DNA of 64,000 nt from Trichocoleus desertorum ATA4-8-CV12 (lineage in GTDB: Bacteria; Cyanobacteriota; Cyanobacteriia; FACHB-46): contig JAHHIL010000024.1 in assembly GCA_019358975.1 (NCBI GenBank), forward strand, positions 1 through 64,000, read 5' to 3'. Below, piece after piece: positions 49,695 through 56,909 of the stretch. Position numbers and translations under genes: made by a program. Each line of letters opens with the position of its first letter. The first letter of the stretch is position 1. Below the pieces are notes generated by a model. It saw only the letters and a list, made by a program, of their open reading frames with translations. It ran no database searches and was not told where the DNA came from.

Positions 49695-49838
49695 ATGGCT
49701 TCGACAACTTTTAGCCTGCTTTTCATGATTAATTGGGTACCCCAAGATGCCACTCCTACTCTCAACTTTGCCAGTTTTCTCTTGGTTCTCGCCAGTGCGA
49801 TCGCCCTAGCAACCTTGCAAATTGCCCATAAAAATTAA
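49695..49838 (+). CDS. Candidate 47-residue membrane protein after cmpD
   Basis: The frame runs ATG to TAA over 48 codons, begins MASTTFSLLFMINWVPQD and has one clear membrane span (LNFASFLLVLASAIALATLQ) with a short basic end (IAHKN). GAGG lies nine bases before the ATG. It is in the same direction and 82 nt after cmpD. I do not recognise it. Its span-like composition and position make it a candidate gene, but a frame of this size can arise by chance. Confidence 0.5.
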   Translation: MASTTFSLLFMINWVPQDATPTLNFASFLLVLASAIALATLQIAHKN

Positions 49839-49888
49839 TAGAAACCTAACCCTCCACTCCTTTGCTATCAAGACAGCAAGATTAAAAG

Positions 49889-49926
49889 CCCCTTTCCTAC
49901 AGGAGAGGGGTTTGGGGAGAGGTTTA
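49889..49926. repeat. Short G/C hairpin repeat
   Basis: CCCCTTTCCT-ACA-GGAGAGGGG type hairpin (49889-49910, one mismatch region) followed by TTTGGGGAGAGG. It resembles a dispersed cyanobacterial intergenic repeat. It lies in the leader of the PsiE-like gene. Confidence 0.5.
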
Positions 49927-49950
49927 TCCAAAGAGTGGACGAGAAGGCGC

Positions 49951-50415
49951 ATGTGGAAAGAAATTAGAAGTCAAATCTCTGATTGGAGCGAGGATGAAGC
50001 TTTTCTCATCCGCTTGAAACAGCTGGAAAACCTGGCTTCCAAAGCCTTGTCGATCGCGATGGTCATTGTTATTTTAGTTGCGATCGTTGATTTGGGAGTT
50101 GTCCTAATCAAAGACTTATTATTGCCACCCTACAACATCCTGGGTAAAGATTTACTCGAGATTTTTGGGCTGTTCTTAAATGTTTTAATTGCTCTAGAGA
50201 TTCTAGAAAATATTACAGCTTATCTCCGAAAGCATGTCATTCAAGTTGAATTAGTCATTGTCACTTCAATTGTTGCGGTCGCTCGCAAAATTATTATTTT
50301 GGATTTTGGTAAAACGTCAGGGGTAGATTTAATTGGCTTGGCGATCGCAATCTTTTCCTTAGCCGTTAGTTATTGGGTGATTCACCACACCAATTCCAGG
50401 TCATCTCATCACTAG
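49951..50415 (+). CDS. PsiE-family (phosphate-starvation-inducible E) membrane protein
   Basis: The 154-residue protein has four membrane spans and the PsiE pattern: LFLNVLIALEILENITAYLR, VELVIVTSIVAVARKIIIL. PsiE's function is unknown. The frame is open back to 49822, but that part overlaps the repeat at 49889-49926 and is unlikely to be coding; the ATG 49951 (MWKEIRSQ) is preferred. It lies between cmpD and ndhF3, on the same strand. A role in the carbon island is not known. Confidence 0.75.
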   Translation: MWKEIRSQISDWSEDEAFLIRLKQLENLASKALSIAMVIVILVAIVDLGVVLIKDLLLPPYNILGKDLLEIFGLFLNVLIALEILENITAYLRKHVIQVELVIVTSIVAVARKIIILDFGKTSGVDLIGLAIAIFSLAVSYWVIHHTNSRSSHH

Positions 50416-50765: not shown

Positions 50766-52598
50766 ATGAGCCAGCTTCTCCTGCAGAGCGTCTGGTTGAT
50801 TCCTTGCTATGCCTTAGTGGGCACGATACTGGCAATTCCCTGGTCACCAGGATTGTTAGACCGCGTTGGCCCACGACCCGCAGGCTACCTCAACCTATTA
50901 ATGACCAGTGTGGCGTTTGCCCATAGTCTGTTGGCCCTTCAGGCTATTGGGCAACAAGCACCCCAACAAATCCTTTTTCCTTGGCTCCATGCAGCGGGCT
51001 TACAAGTAGATCTCGCTTTCATGGTGTCTCCTGTGACTCTAGGCGCGATCGCTGTGGTTACTGGGCTAAATTTACTCACCCAACTCTATGCGATCGGCTA
51101 TTTGGAGATGGACTGGGGTTGGGCTCGTTTCTATGCCTTGATGGGCTTCTTTGAAGCGGGAGTATGCAGTTTAGCTCTCTGTAATTCTCTATTTTTTAGC
51201 TATGTCTTTTTGGAATTGCTGACGCTGGCGACTTATCTTTTAGTCGGATTTTGGTTTGCGCAGCCATTAGTAGTGACTGGGGCTAGGGACGCTTTCTGGA
51301 CCAAGCGAGTCGGCGATTTGATCCTATTCATGGGCGTAATCGCACTGCTTCCCTTAGCAGGTACTTGGAATTTCACAGACCTAGGAGAATGGGCTGCTAC
51401 TGCCCAACTCTCTCCCTCAAGGGCGACACTGCTAGGACTAGCTTTGATTGCAGGGCCACTAGGCAAATGCGCTCAGTTTCCGTTCCAGTTATGGCTAGAT
51501 GAAGCGATGGAAGCTCCTATTCCTGCTTCGATCTTGCGGAACTCAGTGGTCGTTGGGGCAGGGGCTTATGTGCTGATTAAACTGCAACCAGTTTTAGCTC
51601 TCTCTCCGGTAGCTTTGACTGCTCTGGTAGTCTTTGGGACTGCGACAGCTTTGGGGGCTTCCCTGATCGCGATCGCTCAAATCGATATTAAGCGGGCGTT
51701 GTCTTACTCCGTCAGTGCTTACATGGGGTTTGTGTTTATCGCCGTGGGCACCCAACACCCAGAGGCAGCGCAGTTACTCTTATTAACTCAGTCCTGTGCT
51801 TTTGCTTTGTTGTTCATGGCGGCTGGGGCAGTGATTTGGAGCACGATTACCCAAGACTTGACTCAGTTAGGCGGCTTGTGGCCTCGACGACCCATCTCTG
51901 GTTTGGCCCTACTGATTGGTGCTGCTGGGTTAATTGCTCTCCCTCCCTTCGGTGGTTTTTGGGGACTCTTACAGCTAGCCGATGCGTTATGGACAACAAA
52001 ACCTTGGTTAGTCGGAGTCTTGTTATTGGTGAATGGGTTGACGGCTTTTAGTTTGATGCGTGTGTTTGGTTTAGCCTTTGGTGGCAAACCAACTCAAATG
52101 ACGGAGCGATCGCCCGAAGTGCATTGGCCAATGGCTTTACCCATGTCTGTGTTGACTGTGTTTACGCTGTTGTTGCCGCTAGTTTTACAGCACTTTGATC
52201 TGTTGCCGAACTGGGCAGAACTGAACAGGCAATTGGCTCCATTGCTAGTCTGGTCTACTGTCTTAGGTGTCAGTTTGGGTGGCGCAATTTATTTGGGCAA
52301 TGCTGTGCCCAAGCCTGTAAAGCTGTTCTGGCAACCCCTGCAAGAATTTTTGGCCTACGATTTTTATATTCAGCAACTCTATCAACTCACAATTGTGAAC
52401 TTGGTGAATTCCAGCGCTCGGTTGACTGCTTGGTTCGATCGCCATGTCATTGATGGTGCGGTGAATGCAGTAGGCTTCGTGACCTTGTTTAGTGGTCAAG
52501 CGTTGCGGTATACCGCGTCTGGTCAGTCGCAGTTATACGTTCTGTTGGTCATTTCCAGTTTGATTGCGCTCGGATTTTTAGTCAGTTGGTCGTTCTAG
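50766..52598 (+). CDS. ndhF3: NDH-1 subunit NdhF3 (CO2-uptake form)
   Basis: The 610-residue protein is the distal proton-pumping membrane subunit of NDH-1MS, with about 16 spans. It keeps the antiporter pattern (FLELLTLATYLLVGFWF with the key Glu; later Lys positions in the KRALSYSVSAYMGF helix). The region FPFQLWLDEAMEAPIPASIL followed by RNSVVVGAGAYVLIKL differs from respiratory NdhF1 (usual [20 protein letters not shown]) and is typical for NdhF3/F4. This variant links the pump to CO2 hydration. It is the first gene of the operon and is preceded by two inverted repeats. Confidence 0.92.
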   Translation: MSQLLLQSVWLIPCYALVGTILAIPWSPGLLDRVGPRPAGYLNLLMTSVAFAHSLLALQAIGQQAPQQILFPWLHAAGLQVDLAFMVSPVTLGAIAVVTGLNLLTQLYAIGYLEMDWGWARFYALMGFFEAGVCSLALCNSLFFSYVFLELLTLATYLLVGFWFAQPLVVTGARDAFWTKRVGDLILFMGVIALLPLAGTWNFTDLGEWAATAQLSPSRATLLGLALIAGPLGKCAQFPFQLWLDEAMEAPIPASILRNSVVVGAGAYVLIKLQPVLALSPVALTALVVFGTATALGASLIAIAQIDIKRALSYSVSAYMGFVFIAVGTQHPEAAQLLLLTQSCAFALLFMAAGAVIWSTITQDLTQLGGLWPRRPISGLALLIGAAGLIALPPFGGFWGLLQLADALWTTKPWLVGVLLLVNGLTAFSLMRVFGLAFGGKPTQMTERSPEVHWPMALPMSVLTVFTLLLPLVLQHFDLLPNWAELNRQLAPLLVWSTVLGVSLGGAIYLGNAVPKPVKLFWQPLQEFLAYDFYIQQLYQLTIVNLVNSSARLTAWFDRHVIDGAVNAVGFVTLFSGQALRYTASGQSQLYVLLVISSLIALGFLVSWSF

Positions 52599-52657: not shown

Positions 52658-53404
52658 ATGAGTGTTCGGAAACAGCTTTCCCGTCGGAACATGTTGAAGT
52701 TTGGTGCGGGAGCTTTGGGCAGTGGGGCGATCGCCGTTGGTTTGGGTTCTAAGTCTCAGGCGACTGAACCAGCTGCTGCCAAACCAGCCACCACCAAACC
52801 AGCCGCTGCCAAAGCAAAAGTCAGTAAAGACAATCCCACCCCTGATCAAGCGCTGAAATTATTAATGGATGGCAACAAGCGCTTTGTGACCCGTAAGTTA
52901 GAATATCCGCGTCAAGATTGGGCCAGAGTACAGGAAGTGGCTAAAGGCCAAAATCCCTTTGCTGCCGTTCTGAGCTGCGCCGATTCCCGCATTCCAGCAG
53001 AAATTGTTCTCGACCAAGGATTTGGTGACTTATTTGTCTGCCGTGTTGCAGGTAATGTCGCAACTCCTGAAGAGGTTGGCAGTCTAGAGTTTGGCGCAGC
53101 GGTACTTGGCACCAAAGTAATTATGGTGGTCGGTCATGAACGCTGCGGAGCCGTAGAAGCCACAATCAAGGGTGCCCAGGTACCAGGACAAATTGGCAAG
53201 TTGATTGATGCGATTAAACCTGCTCTAAGTCGCACCAAAAAGTTTACAGGTGATCCGCTGGCAAAGGCAGTGAAAGCCAATGTGTTGCTACAAGTTGACA
53301 ATCTCAAAGCTTCCCCAGTACTAGCCGATCTAATTGCATCGGGACAACTGAAAATCGTGGGCGCTTACTACGACTTGGATGCTGGAACAATCACGTTAGT
53401 TTAA
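52658..53404 (+). CDS. ecaB: Tat-exported beta-carbonic anhydrase (EcaB-like)
   Basis: The 249-residue protein begins with a twin-arginine signal (LSRRNMLKFGAGALGSG) and an Ala/Lys/Pro/Thr linker (38-55), then a beta-carbonic anhydrase. The zinc and active-site residues are present: Cys107, Asp109 and Arg111 (SCADSR) and His160 and Cys163 (HERCG). It should sit in the periplasm or thylakoid lumen. In Synechocystis, EcaB is reported to be thylakoid-associated and to interact with CupA and CupB. Here the gene lies within the ndhF3-ndhD3-cupA operon, 60 nt after ndhF3 and 31 nt before ndhD3. The frame opens at 52586; the ATG 52658 starts the signal. Confidence 0.9.
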   Translation: MSVRKQLSRRNMLKFGAGALGSGAIAVGLGSKSQATEPAAAKPATTKPAAAKAKVSKDNPTPDQALKLLMDGNKRFVTRKLEYPRQDWARVQEVAKGQNPFAAVLSCADSRIPAEIVLDQGFGDLFVCRVAGNVATPEEVGSLEFGAAVLGTKVIMVVGHERCGAVEATIKGAQVPGQIGKLIDAIKPALSRTKKFTGDPLAKAVKANVLLQVDNLKASPVLADLIASGQLKIVGAYYDLDAGTITLV

Positions 53405-53434: not shown

Positions 53435-54949
53435 ATGCTCAGTACAATCATTTGGCTGCCTGTGGTGGGCGCTGCTTTAATCGGATTTTGGCCGCAAACC
53501 TGGAGTCCACAGCGATCGCATTTTGTGGCTTGGGCGATCGCGGGTCTGACTTTTCTCGCCACGGTATTCTTGGCGATCAACTTCGACTTTCACAGCTCAG
53601 GGATGCAATTTCAAGAACATATTAGTTGGATTGCTCCCCTGGGTCTCGACTATCGCCTAGGAGTGGATGGCTTGTCGTTGCCGTTGGTGGTGCTGAATGG
53701 ATTCCTAATTTGGATCGCAATTCAAAGCACTCCTGAGCAAGTGTCCCGCCCTCGACTGTTCTACTCACTAATTTTCTTGCTCAGTGCGGCGGTAGCAGGA
53801 GCCTTTCTGGCCCAAAACTTGCTGTTATTCTTCTTGTTCTACGAGTTAGAGCTGATTCCCATCTATTTACTAATCGTGATTTGGGGTGGCGATCGCCGGG
53901 GATATGCAGCGACCAAGTTCCTGATTTACCAAGCGCTGTCTGGGATTGTCTTGCTGGTTGGATTCTTAGCTTGGGCTTGGGCGAGTGGATCGAGCACCTT
54001 CACGGTGGAAGTGGAAGCGTTGGCATCTTCTTTACCGATGGGACTACAACTCATATTGCTCTCGATTCTGATTCTGGGCTTTGGCATCAAAATGCCGCTG
54101 GTGCCGTTCCATACTTGGTTACCGGATGCCTATGTGGAAGCTTCCACACCTGTTTCAATCCTTTTGGGTGGAATCGTTTCCAAACTGGGCACCTATGGCC
54201 TGATCCGATTTGGTCTTGCTTTGTTTCCCGATGCTTGGAATGTCGTGGCACCTTGGTTGGCTACGGCGGCTGTTGTCACTTCTCTCTATGGCGCTTTAGT
54301 CGCGATCGCTCAGACCGACATGAAGAAGATGATCGCCTACAGTTCTGTCTCCCACCTCAGCTATGTGTTGCTGGCTAGTGCGGCGGCGACTAACCTGAGC
54401 CTCTTGGGTGCAGTTTGTCAGATGGTGGCTCATGGCTTGATCTTGGCACTCCTGTTCTATCTAGTGGGTGTGATTGAAACCAAAACAGGTAGCCGCGATT
54501 TGGCTCAACTGCAAGGACTGTTAAACCCCAAGCGTGGATTGCCCTTAATCAGTGGGATTTTAATCTTGGGGACAATGGCGAGTGCTGGAATTCCTGGAAT
54601 GGTCGGCTTTGTCGGTGAGTTTCTCAGCTTTCAAGGGAGCTATACCATGTTTCCGGCGCAAACGCTGCTCTGCCTAGCCAGTACTGGACTCACCTCCGTT
54701 TATTTTGTGCTTCTGATTAACCGAGCCTTATTTGGTCGCTTAGAAGACAAGCTCAGCTATCTGCCTAAGGTGACTTGGGAGGAACAAATTCCGGCGATCG
54801 CCCTAATCGCGTTGATTGTTCTATTAGGGGTGCAACCGAATGCCCTGGTGAGCTGGAGCCAAACCACTACCAATTCTCTCGTAGCACTGGTATCTGAACA
54901 CAGCCCGCAGCAGGTTGCTCTCACCCCGAATTCCTCTCAATCCGATTAG
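53435..54949 (+). CDS. ndhD3: NDH-1 subunit NdhD3 (CO2-uptake form)
   Basis: The 504-residue protein is the NdhD antiporter-like subunit: LSTIIWLPVVGAALIGFWPQ, LFYELELIPIYLLIVIWGGD (the key Glu), PFHTWLPDAYVEASTPVSIL and KKMIAYSSVSHLSYVLLASA. It pumps protons next to NdhF3. The ATG at 53435 is preferred over an upstream TTG (53405). Subclass D3 instead of D1/D2 is supported by its operon with ndhF3, cupA and cupS. The next gene begins 10 nt after its stop. Confidence 0.9.
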   Translation: MLSTIIWLPVVGAALIGFWPQTWSPQRSHFVAWAIAGLTFLATVFLAINFDFHSSGMQFQEHISWIAPLGLDYRLGVDGLSLPLVVLNGFLIWIAIQSTPEQVSRPRLFYSLIFLLSAAVAGAFLAQNLLLFFLFYELELIPIYLLIVIWGGDRRGYAATKFLIYQALSGIVLLVGFLAWAWASGSSTFTVEVEALASSLPMGLQLILLSILILGFGIKMPLVPFHTWLPDAYVEASTPVSILLGGIVSKLGTYGLIRFGLALFPDAWNVVAPWLATAAVVTSLYGALVAIAQTDMKKMIAYSSVSHLSYVLLASAAATNLSLLGAVCQMVAHGLILALLFYLVGVIETKTGSRDLAQLQGLLNPKRGLPLISGILILGTMASAGIPGMVGFVGEFLSFQGSYTMFPAQTLLCLASTGLTSVYFVLLINRALFGRLEDKLSYLPKVTWEEQIPAIALIALIVLLGVQPNALVSWSQTTTNSLVALVSEHSPQQVALTPNSSQSD

Positions 54950-54959
54950 GAAAACCACG

Positions 54960-55589
54960 ATGCAACCTTCACCCCAGCCAATTTCTTCTGCTTCCGCTCA
55001 ATTCTCAATCAAATCTTTACCGTTTGCGCTGGTGGTGATGCGCTTGCTAATTGCTCCCTGTCTCGTTTGGGATGCCCTGGATCGCAACATATCTGTCTGG
55101 TTTCTAATTGGCTTTATTGCCGCTTTTCTCTCTGATATCTTCGATGGCATGATTGCTCGGCGTTTGGGTGTCAGTACAATGCAGTTACGACAAGCGGATA
55201 GTTGGGCTGATGTGGCACTTTATAGCGGCATCGCGGCCAGTGCTTGGTTAGTCTATCCCCAAGTGTTGATTGACTTCCGCCTTCCCCTGCTCACGGTCAT
55301 GGCTGTACAGGTCTTATTGTTTAGCCTGAGCTGGCTGAAGTTTGGCAAAACTCCCAGTTATCACACCTACAGCGCTAAAGTTTGGGGTCTAACTTTGTTC
55401 GCTGCCACAGTGGCTTTGTTTGGCTTCAATGATGCAGGTTTAGCGTTGTGGAGTGCGATCGCCCTCGGTCTGATCAACAGCCTCGAAGAAATCATCATGA
55501 CACTAGTTTTGCCCACCTGGACTCATGATGTTCTGAGCATTGTCCACGCCCTAAAAATACGACGCGATTATTCAGCTACAGTTTCTTGA
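54960..55589 (+). CDS. CDP-alcohol phosphatidyltransferase-fold membrane protein
   Basis: The 209-residue, six-span protein has the CDP-alcohol phosphotransferase motif: Asp59, Asp62-Gly63 (DIFDGMIARR), Ala66-Arg67, Asp80 and Asp84 (QADSWAD), i.e. all four catalytic Asp. The usual Gly between AR and the third Asp is Leu76 here. Such enzymes move a phospho-alcohol group from a CDP-lipid or CDP-alcohol to make phosphatidylglycerol and related lipids. It lies 10 nt after ndhD3 and 33 nt before cupA, so is surely in the operon. Substrate and link to CO2 uptake are unknown. Confidence 0.8.
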   Translation: MQPSPQPISSASAQFSIKSLPFALVVMRLLIAPCLVWDALDRNISVWFLIGFIAAFLSDIFDGMIARRLGVSTMQLRQADSWADVALYSGIAASAWLVYPQVLIDFRLPLLTVMAVQVLLFSLSWLKFGKTPSYHTYSAKVWGLTLFAATVALFGFNDAGLALWSAIALGLINSLEEIIMTLVLPTWTHDVLSIVHALKIRRDYSATVS

Positions 55590-55622: not shown

Positions 55623-56909
55623 ATGACAACTGCAACCGCAACCCAGTTACCTCCTTCTACCCATGAATTTGCCGAGGTGATTCATCGGCTAGAAGCGGGT
55701 GGTGCCATGCTGCCTGATACGCCAGAGAACCTCATGCAAATTATTGGTATCTACAAAGCCTATGCAGTGCCGATGGATTTCTACTGGCGCGATCTCCTTT
55801 ATATTGCGGAGCGAGTCTTCCTTAACCCCCTACCCTTTTTCAAGTATTTCCTGCCTCAAGAATATTTAGACCTGCACAACCACTACGCTGGAGACGACGC
55901 AGATTTGCGGATTTGGCGTGGTGAAGCAACTGCCCATCCAGAACTATTAGAGTTCATGCAGAAGGGCGAAACCACCCAAATGCCCAAACTGTTCCACCAT
56001 TTGCTGCACGATCGCGTCAATATGGAGTTTGCCGAAGCTTGTATGCGGGCGATGTTGTGGCACCGAGGCATGGGAGGTAAGTTTGACCCTTATCTCGACA
56101 CCCCAGAATATAAAGCTGCTGCCGATCGCGCCATCAAGGCTTACTTCAAGGGCAACCCTGCCATGCTGGGCCTCTACAAGCTGTTCCCAGAAATGTTTAT
56201 TGAGCAGGTACGGCAGCTCTCCTACTACGCCAACCTGGGTCTGTTCTGGGAAGTCATGGCTCCGGTGTTCTTTGAGATGAGCGATCGCTACGATTGCGGC
56301 GAAATCACCAGCGTTCCCGAAGCGATGAATTTCCTGGTGAATGGCATCTTTGCAGTTGCAGGCCGACCGATTTATCACCATGTCTATATCGGGGGAGAAT
56401 GCTTTGAAATCATCCCCAAATCTTGCGGGTTTACCTGGCTGTATGAAGCCGCTCTCCCTTATGTAGAAGCTGTGTTCTATCGCACCGCTCCTTTCCGGGG
56501 CACCAAGTCTTACAATGCTCAGGCAGAGCAAGTGCCAGCCGAACAAAAAGATTTCCACTACGGTATTCTTTACGCCGATGTGAATCCGGTAGGCACAGCA
56601 GGGATTCCTCCGACATTACTCATGCAGGATATGTTGCACTTCCTCCCACCTTACTTGGTGGACTATTACCAGCAACATTGCCGTGGCAAAGATGACATGC
56701 TGATTCAGCTAGGGGTGAGTTTTCAGCGATCGATGTACTGTGTGACTTCGGCGGTGATCCAAGCCCTACGGACAGCCTTGCTCTATCCTTTAGATGATCA
56801 AAATCCCAAGCATTTGCAAGCCAATCGAGAGTTCTTTGAAGCGCAGATCGATCGCTTTAAACGCCCAGAAGCTCGTTTGCGGGATATTCAGGCTCAGTCT
56901 TATCGATAA
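55623..56909 (+). CDS. cupA: CO2 hydration protein CupA (ChpY)
   Basis: The 428-residue protein is the CO2-hydrating subunit of NDH-1MS, sitting on NdhF3/NdhD3 on the cytoplasmic side. It has the CupA/CupB pattern: MDFYWRDLLYIAERVFLNPL, KYFLPQEYLDLHNHYAGDD, HHLLHDRVNMEFAEACMRAM and NFLVNGIFAVAGRPIYHHVY. In the solved complex a zinc is held by a His and an Arg five residues apart; His126 and Arg131 (HLLHDR) fit this. A strong AAGGAG lies before the ATG. Operon position after ndhD3 points to CupA, not CupB, which is usually with ndhF4/D4. Confidence 0.92.
   Translation: MTTATATQLPPSTHEFAEVIHRLEAGGAMLPDTPENLMQIIGIYKAYAVPMDFYWRDLLYIAERVFLNPLPFFKYFLPQEYLDLHNHYAGDDADLRIWRGEATAHPELLEFMQKGETTQMPKLFHHLLHDRVNMEFAEACMRAMLWHRGMGGKFDPYLDTPEYKAAADRAIKAYFKGNPAMLGLYKLFPEMFIEQVRQLSYYANLGLFWEVMAPVFFEMSDRYDCGEITSVPEAMNFLVNGIFAVAGRPIYHHVYIGGECFEIIPKSCGFTWLYEAALPYVEAVFYRTAPFRGTKSYNAQAEQVPAEQKDFHYGILYADVNPVGTAGIPPTLLMQDMLHFLPPYLVDYYQQHCRGKDDMLIQLGVSFQRSMYCVTSAVIQALRTALLYPLDDQNPKHLQANREFFEAQIDRFKRPEARLRDIQAQSYR

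What the first reader, a model, noticed from the sequence alone, without database searches (positions are those of the whole stretch)
54960..55589. CDP-alcohol phosphatidyltransferase-fold gene inside the CO2-uptake operon
A six-span protein with all four catalytic Asp residues (59, 62, 80, 84) lies 10 nt after ndhD3 and 33 nt before cupA. The motif Gly is Leu76. Lipid-synthesis enzymes are not part of the known NDH-1MS module. It could supply or alter a lipid bound at the NdhF3/NdhD3/CupA interface, or be an assembly factor. This is the least explained member of the operon.
Basis: partly seen in the sequence, partly recalled or inferred. Interest (0 to 1): 0.75.

Follow-up and report, generated by a model that had tools for sequence, protein, structure and literature searches.

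The report
Optional lipid-enzyme gene in CO2-uptake operon
Some cyanobacteria carry, inside the gene cluster for their low-CO2 uptake machine, an intact and strongly conserved gene that looks like a membrane-lipid-making enzyme of unknown product; it is genuinely tied to that cluster in several lineages but is optional, since close relatives have deleted it cleanly and kept the machine.

Summary
D59, D62, D80 and D84 are present, and Leu76 replaces the motif Gly. It lies between ndhD3 and cupA. I call it CAP. It is not PgsA: the genome has a separate PgsA, and CAP fails every equivalog cut-off. CAP is an uncharacterised subfamily in which the catalytic residues and Leu76 are invariant, under strong purifying selection (dN/dS about 0.05-0.24). 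The order ndhF3-(beta-CA)-ndhD3-CAP-cupA recurs in 43 of the 80 best named relatives, in at least eight families, so the link is real and old. It is also dispensable. In two even genome draws only 15 of 49 CAP genes lie in the operon, and solo copies occur on plasmids or beside VTT-domain genes. Two congeners of the window genome share a clean CAP deletion while keeping a 98-99% identical CupA. Most likely it is an active phospholipid head-group transferase placed under low-CO2 control in some lineages: an optional accessory, not a core NDH-1MS part. Substrate and role are untested. No held paper mentions it in this operon.

The parts
54960..55589 (+). CAP: six-TM protein of the CDP-alcohol phosphotransferase fold (PF01066), uncharacterised subfamily
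55134..55211 (+). Motif D59xxD62G63xxA66R67...L76xxxD80xxxD84 (motif Gly2 replaced by Leu, invariant in 61 sequences)
55539..55583 (+). C-terminal helix, residues 194-208
   Evidence: AlphaFold model
54954..55517 (+). Stretch missing in congener G404 (L182); in G398 (L181) the missing stretch is 54946-55517; both end at the same base inside CAP
50766..52598 (+). ndhF3
   Evidence: TIGR01960
52658..53404 (+). beta-carbonic anhydrase with Tat-like N-terminus
   Evidence: PF00484, 135.9 bits
53405..54949 (+). ndhD3 (true start possibly an internal ATG)
55623..56909 (+). cupA (chpY)
   Evidence: TIGR01964, 774.7 bits
57064..57465 (+). fasciclin-domain gene, cupS-like by position and domain
   Evidence: PF02469

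Best explanation
CAP is most likely an active integral-membrane phospholipid head-group transferase of an uncharacterised subfamily. It would use two metal ions held by D59/D62/D80/D84 and a CDP-linked lipid, most simply the CDP-diacylglycerol that PgsA already uses, and transfer the phosphatidyl group to an alcohol that is probably not a phosphate ester. In several lineages it sits between ndhD3 and cupA, and so is probably transcribed with the low-CO2-inducible NDH-1MS genes, adding a minor phospholipid or remodelling the membrane when NDH-1MS is made. It is an optional accessory. Shown: gene, fold prediction, invariant catalytic residues, purifying selection, recurrent operon position, and clean loss in congeners. 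Inferred: catalysis, substrates, co-transcription and any effect on NDH-1MS.
For: PF01066 53.2 bits. AlphaFold model pLDDT 93.6, pTM 0.84; best solved folds are PGP synthase (Z 15.2), PIP synthases, AF2299 and cholinephosphotransferase. D59, D62, G63, R67, L76, R77, D80, D84, Q117, K127, H135, K140, E176 and E177 are invariant in 61 sequences. dN/dS 0.05-0.24 in 20 pairs. Separate PgsA in the same genome at 135 bits; in 13 CAP genomes every one has a separate strong PF01066 hit. The best equivalog hit, PssA, is far below cut-off. The residue after D84 is V or I in 51 of 61 (R in 3), where the PgsA sequences have Lys; PMC6506517 says the corresponding PIP-synthase position is always K/R and links it to the phosphorylated acceptor. 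Order ndhF3-(CA)-ndhD3-CAP-cupA in 43 of 80 named loci. Solo copies are followed by a VTT-domain (PF09335) gene in 7 of 39 loci. CupA contacts several lipids in the NDH-1MS structure (PMC6981117), and NDH-1L binds 15 lipids (PMC7021789).
Against: The motif Gly2, which lines the nucleotide cleft in PIP synthase (PMC6506517), is Leu throughout, so the donor pocket differs and CDP-lipid use is unproven. Most subfamily members (34 of 49 in even draws) are not in the operon. Two congeners lost CAP without visible change to NDH-1MS genes. Thylakoids are described with four lipid classes, of which PG is the one phospholipid (abstract of PMC5897459), so a new head group would be unexpected.
Confidence: 0.5

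Rival explanations
1. Dedicated NDH-1MS factor: CAP makes, or simply holds, a lipid at the NdhF3/NdhD3/CupA interface, or acts as an assembly factor or extra subunit.
For: Exact slot between ndhD3 and cupA in 43 of 80 named relatives across at least eight families. Operon members cluster on the tree: 6 label changes against a shuffled mean of 29. Positions that distinguish the mostly operonic clade from the solo clade cluster in TM4 and the TM4-TM5 loop: 120, 121, 124, 128, 131, 132, 134, 138. Precedent: CupAR, another small membrane protein of this operon, is reported as an NDH-1MS subunit (PMC11456788).
Against: CupA is in 305 of 390 class genomes and CAP in only 43. Clean CAP loss in two congeners, a remnant in G306 and a frameshifted copy in G495. 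The window CAP itself groups with the solo clade (99/97) and has solo-type residues at several diagnostic positions. Three solo-CAP genomes show no CupA at the threshold used, though two are under 85% complete.
Confidence: 0.25
2. Hitch-hiker: a mobile lipid gene that landed in the operon, with no functional tie to CO2 uptake beyond shared transcription.
For: Solo copies on plasmids, one beside a Tn7-like transposition set; patchy distribution; repeated loss.
Against: Strong purifying selection on operonic copies and retention in one slot across several families.
Confidence: 0.2
3. Pseudoenzyme: the fold is kept for a structural or lipid-binding role and Leu76 has closed the nucleotide pocket.
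For: Leu76 invariant (61 of 61) where PgsA has Gly; the Gly lines the nucleotide cleft in PIP synthase (PMC6506517).
Against: All four metal-binding Asp plus G63 and R67, which contact the alpha-phosphate in PIP synthase, are invariant; the Thiothrix and G044 relatives keep both the Asp residues and the Leu-Arg. Pseudoenzymes usually lose metal ligands (general knowledge).
Confidence: 0.12
4. Second PGP synthase (PgsA paralogue) boosting PG supply under low CO2.
For: Closest solved fold is PgsA; PG is the commonest lipid resolved in an NDH-1L structure (PMC7021789).
Against: TIGR00560 14.2 bits against 109.1; the Lys after D4 and the Arg-Glu conserved in PgsA of these genomes have no counterpart in CAP; profile alignment with PgsA covers only the N-terminal 69 columns.
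Confidence: 0.07

Closest known systems
Bacterial PGP synthase PgsA (solved: 7DRJ/7DRK)
   Same: Six-helix fold (Z 15.2, rmsd 3.0 over 162 residues); same D-D-G-AR...D-D motif order.
   Different: Gly2 to Leu, Lys after D4 to Val/Ile, no Arg-Glu in TM4; about 20% identity; separate PgsA in the same genome.
PIP synthases (5D92, 6WM5, 6H53) and AF2299 (4O6M)
   Same: Fold (Z 10.5-12.6) and the four Asp.
   Different: Gly2 missing; positively charged residue after D4 missing.
CDP-DAG-serine phosphatidyltransferase PssA (TIGR00473)
   Same: Best NCBIfam hit (E 7e-6, 26.2 bits).
   Different: Far below the 107-bit cut-off.
NDH-1MS operon accessory proteins (CupS; CupAR of Synechocystis)
   Same: Encoded with ndhF3-ndhD3-cupA; CupAR is a membrane protein of the same operon (PMC11456788).
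   Different: CAP has an enzyme fold and is absent from most NDH-1MS operons.

Membership tests
PF01066 CDP-alcohol phosphotransferase family | Pfam score over gathering cut-off | tested here: met
   53.2 bits against 22
PF01066 CDP-alcohol phosphotransferase family | Six-TM fold | tested here: met
   AlphaFold pLDDT 93.6, six long helices; Z 15.2 to PGP synthase
Canonical CDP-AP motif D1xxD2GxxAR...G2xxxD3xxxD4 | Four Asp, first Gly, Ala-Arg | tested here: met
   Asp, G63 and R67 in 61 of 61, A66 in 60 of 61
Canonical CDP-AP motif D1xxD2GxxAR...G2xxxD3xxxD4 | Second Gly (G2) | tested here: not met
   Leu76, invariant in 61 sequences. Filed as a PF01066 homologue with a variant motif, not as a canonical CDP-AP.
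[quoted passage not shown]
   needs an enzyme assay
PgsA (TIGR00560) | Equivalog score over cut-off | tested here: not met
   14.2 against 109.1 bits
PssA (TIGR00473) | Equivalog score over cut-off | tested here: not met
   26.2 against 107 bits
Cardiolipin synthase ClsA (NF053678) | Equivalog score over cut-off | tested here: not met
   21.1 against 240 bits
Core NDH-1MS subunit | Present wherever ndhF3-ndhD3-cupA is present | tested here: not met
   CupA in 305 of 390 genomes, CAP in 43; lost in two congeners
Core NDH-1MS subunit | Co-purifies with the complex | not testable with these tools
   needs proteomics of purified NDH-1MS from a CAP+ strain
Member of the NDH-1MS operon | Same strand, short gaps, conserved order across genomes | tested here: met
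   window gaps 10 and 33 nt; medians 105 and 44 nt over 43 loci

The most novel reading that the evidence does not exclude
CAP makes a previously unreported cyanobacterial phospholipid under low CO2 that binds at or tunes the NdhF3/NdhD3/CupA interface, so that lipid chemistry becomes a regulated part of the CO2-concentrating mechanism in some lineages.
Probability: 0.15. Interest if true: 0.85.

Novelty: new variant of a known kind. Interest (0 to 1): 0.55.

Why it matters
Cyanobacterial thylakoids are described with only four lipid classes, PG being the one phospholipid. A conserved extra head-group transferase in the low-CO2 operon would mean an unrecognised lipid, and would link lipid synthesis to CO2 uptake. 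The window genome and its two CAP-deleted congeners form a natural comparison in which this is directly testable by lipidomics and CO2-uptake assays without building a mutant.

Tried and rejected
phmmer against the PDB gave no match; the A1 profile gave only a weak PgsA match and a chance hit. No phage relatives; viral fold hits were weak. Papers: no held paper joins CDP-alcohol phosphatidyltransferase with NDH-1, or phosphatidyltransferase with ndhD3, and the papers listed have no CDP-alcohol hit; subscription papers are not held, so absence is not proof. Rooting with the Thiothrix and G044 relatives gave very long branches; whether operon placement arose once or more than once is unresolved on the tree, and the deletion scar shows only that it was ancestral within the window's genus. 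Promoter and terminator scans were no better than shuffles. CAP-CupA co-occurrence is significant (class draw p 0.01; phylum draw p 2e-9) but confounded by lineage and genome size, so I do not lean on it. The wide gaps in G170 and G197 hold unrelated ORFs. The first named sample (43 of 80 operonic) is ranked by similarity to the window and therefore biased; the even draws are the fairer count.

Full report
OBSERVATION. Window 54960-55589 (+) is an open frame of 209 aa with a 10-nt gap after ndhD3 and 33 nt before cupA. Pfam gives CDP-OH_P_transf at 53.2 bits (cut-off 22). Neighbours are NdhF3, a beta-carbonic anhydrase, NdhD3, CupA and a fasciclin protein.

FOLD AND MOTIF. The AlphaFold model from 61 sequences has mean pLDDT 93.6. 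The best solved folds are PGP synthase (Z 15.2), PIP synthases (11-13), cholinephosphotransferase and AF2299. Over 61 sequences the four Asp, G63, R67, L76, R77, Q117, K127, H135, K140, E176 and E177 are invariant. Leu at the second motif Gly is thus a hallmark of the subfamily, not decay; relatives on a Thiothrix plasmid (39.5% identity) and in the contaminated MAG G044 share it. In PIP synthase that Gly lines the nucleotide cleft, and the residue after D4, always K or R, is linked to the phosphorylated acceptor (PMC6506517). CAP has V or I after D4 in 51 of 61, while the PgsA sequences compared have Lys. I infer an unphosphorylated acceptor; this is weak evidence.

NOT PgsA. The genome has a separate PgsA at 135 bits, and all 12 other CAP genomes checked have a comparable separate hit. 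CAP is far below the PgsA, PssA and ClsA equivalog cut-offs.

DISTRIBUTION. A phylum-wide draw of 386 genomes gave 21 with a match: 11 operonic including the window, 8 genomes with solo copies, 1 operonic 3' remnant (G306), and 1 uninformative short contig (G044). A scan of 84,980 species genomes gave 411 relatives; of the best 80, 43 lie in ndhF3-(CA)-ndhD3-CAP-cupA (one contig ends before cupA), in Nostocaceae, Aphanizomenonaceae, Calotrichaceae, Tolypothrichaceae, Nodulariaceae, Oscillatoriaceae, Microcoleaceae, Trichocoleusaceae and Leptolyngbyaceae. That sample is ranked by similarity and therefore biased. A class-wide draw of 390 genomes found CAP in 43 and CupA in 305; combining both draws, 15 of 49 CAP genes are operonic, one of them frameshifted (G495), and 34 are solo. 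Solo copies include plasmid genes, one beside TnsA/TniB/TniQ, and 7 of 39 are followed by a VTT-domain gene. VTT proteins are linked to lipid scrambling (general knowledge).

SELECTION AND TREE. Twenty close pairs, operonic and solo, have dN/dS 0.05-0.24. Operon status clusters on the tree: 6 changes against a shuffled mean of 29. The window CAP is on a long branch next to the solo clade (99/97) and carries a mixture of clade-diagnostic residues. The root is unsure.

THE SCAR. Two congeners of the window genome have no CAP but 98-99% identical CupA. Alignment shows that both lack window 54946/54954-55517 and end the gap at the same base inside CAP; the last ~24 codons remain, without a start, and in G398 the junction reads through stops. 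Because that remnant is the conserved CAP C-terminus, the operonic CAP was ancestral in this genus and was deleted, not newly gained in the window genome. NDH-1MS genes survived the loss.

MECHANISM. Shown: an intact, selected, enzyme-like membrane protein in a conserved operon slot, dispensable. Inferred: it transfers a phosphatidyl group from a CDP-lipid to an alcohol and is made with NDH-1MS at low CO2. CupA and NDH-1 do bind lipids (PMC6981117; PMC7021789), so a specific lipid role is possible but not indicated by the loss pattern. My weights: active lipid enzyme as optional accessory 0.5; dedicated NDH-1MS factor 0.25; hitch-hiker 0.2; pseudoenzyme 0.12; second PGP synthase 0.07 (these overlap in part).

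NOVELTY. The fold family and the operon are known; their union, and this subfamily, were not found in the held literature. I rate it a new variant of a known kind.

Noticed in passing
window 52658-53404: A beta-carbonic anhydrase with a Tat-like signal (SRRNMLK) sits between ndhF3 and ndhD3; it is also in 22 of 43 named CAP+ operons and in many CAP- operons, with a tandem pair in L162.
   Followed up: partly
window 49822-50415: PsiE-family membrane protein gene between the cmpD-like gene and ndhF3; matched in congener G404 (L182) but not in G398 (L181).
   Followed up: no
L044:7811-7963: Only the last ~45 codons of CAP remain between ndhD3 and cupA in G306.
   Followed up: partly
L212:3871-4408: Operonic CAP split by a frameshift in G495.
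   Followed up: no
L087:3476-4132, L090:2994-3650, L158:8590-9252: VTT-domain gene 4 nt downstream of solo CAP, suggesting a lipid-handling pair.
   Followed up: partly
L159:2238-7321: TnsA/TniB/TniQ-type transposition genes upstream of a plasmid-borne CAP in Allocoleopsis.
   Followed up: no
L160:7980-8573: CAP relative on a Thiothrix plasmid, 39.5% identical, with the same Leu-Arg in the motif.
   Followed up: partly
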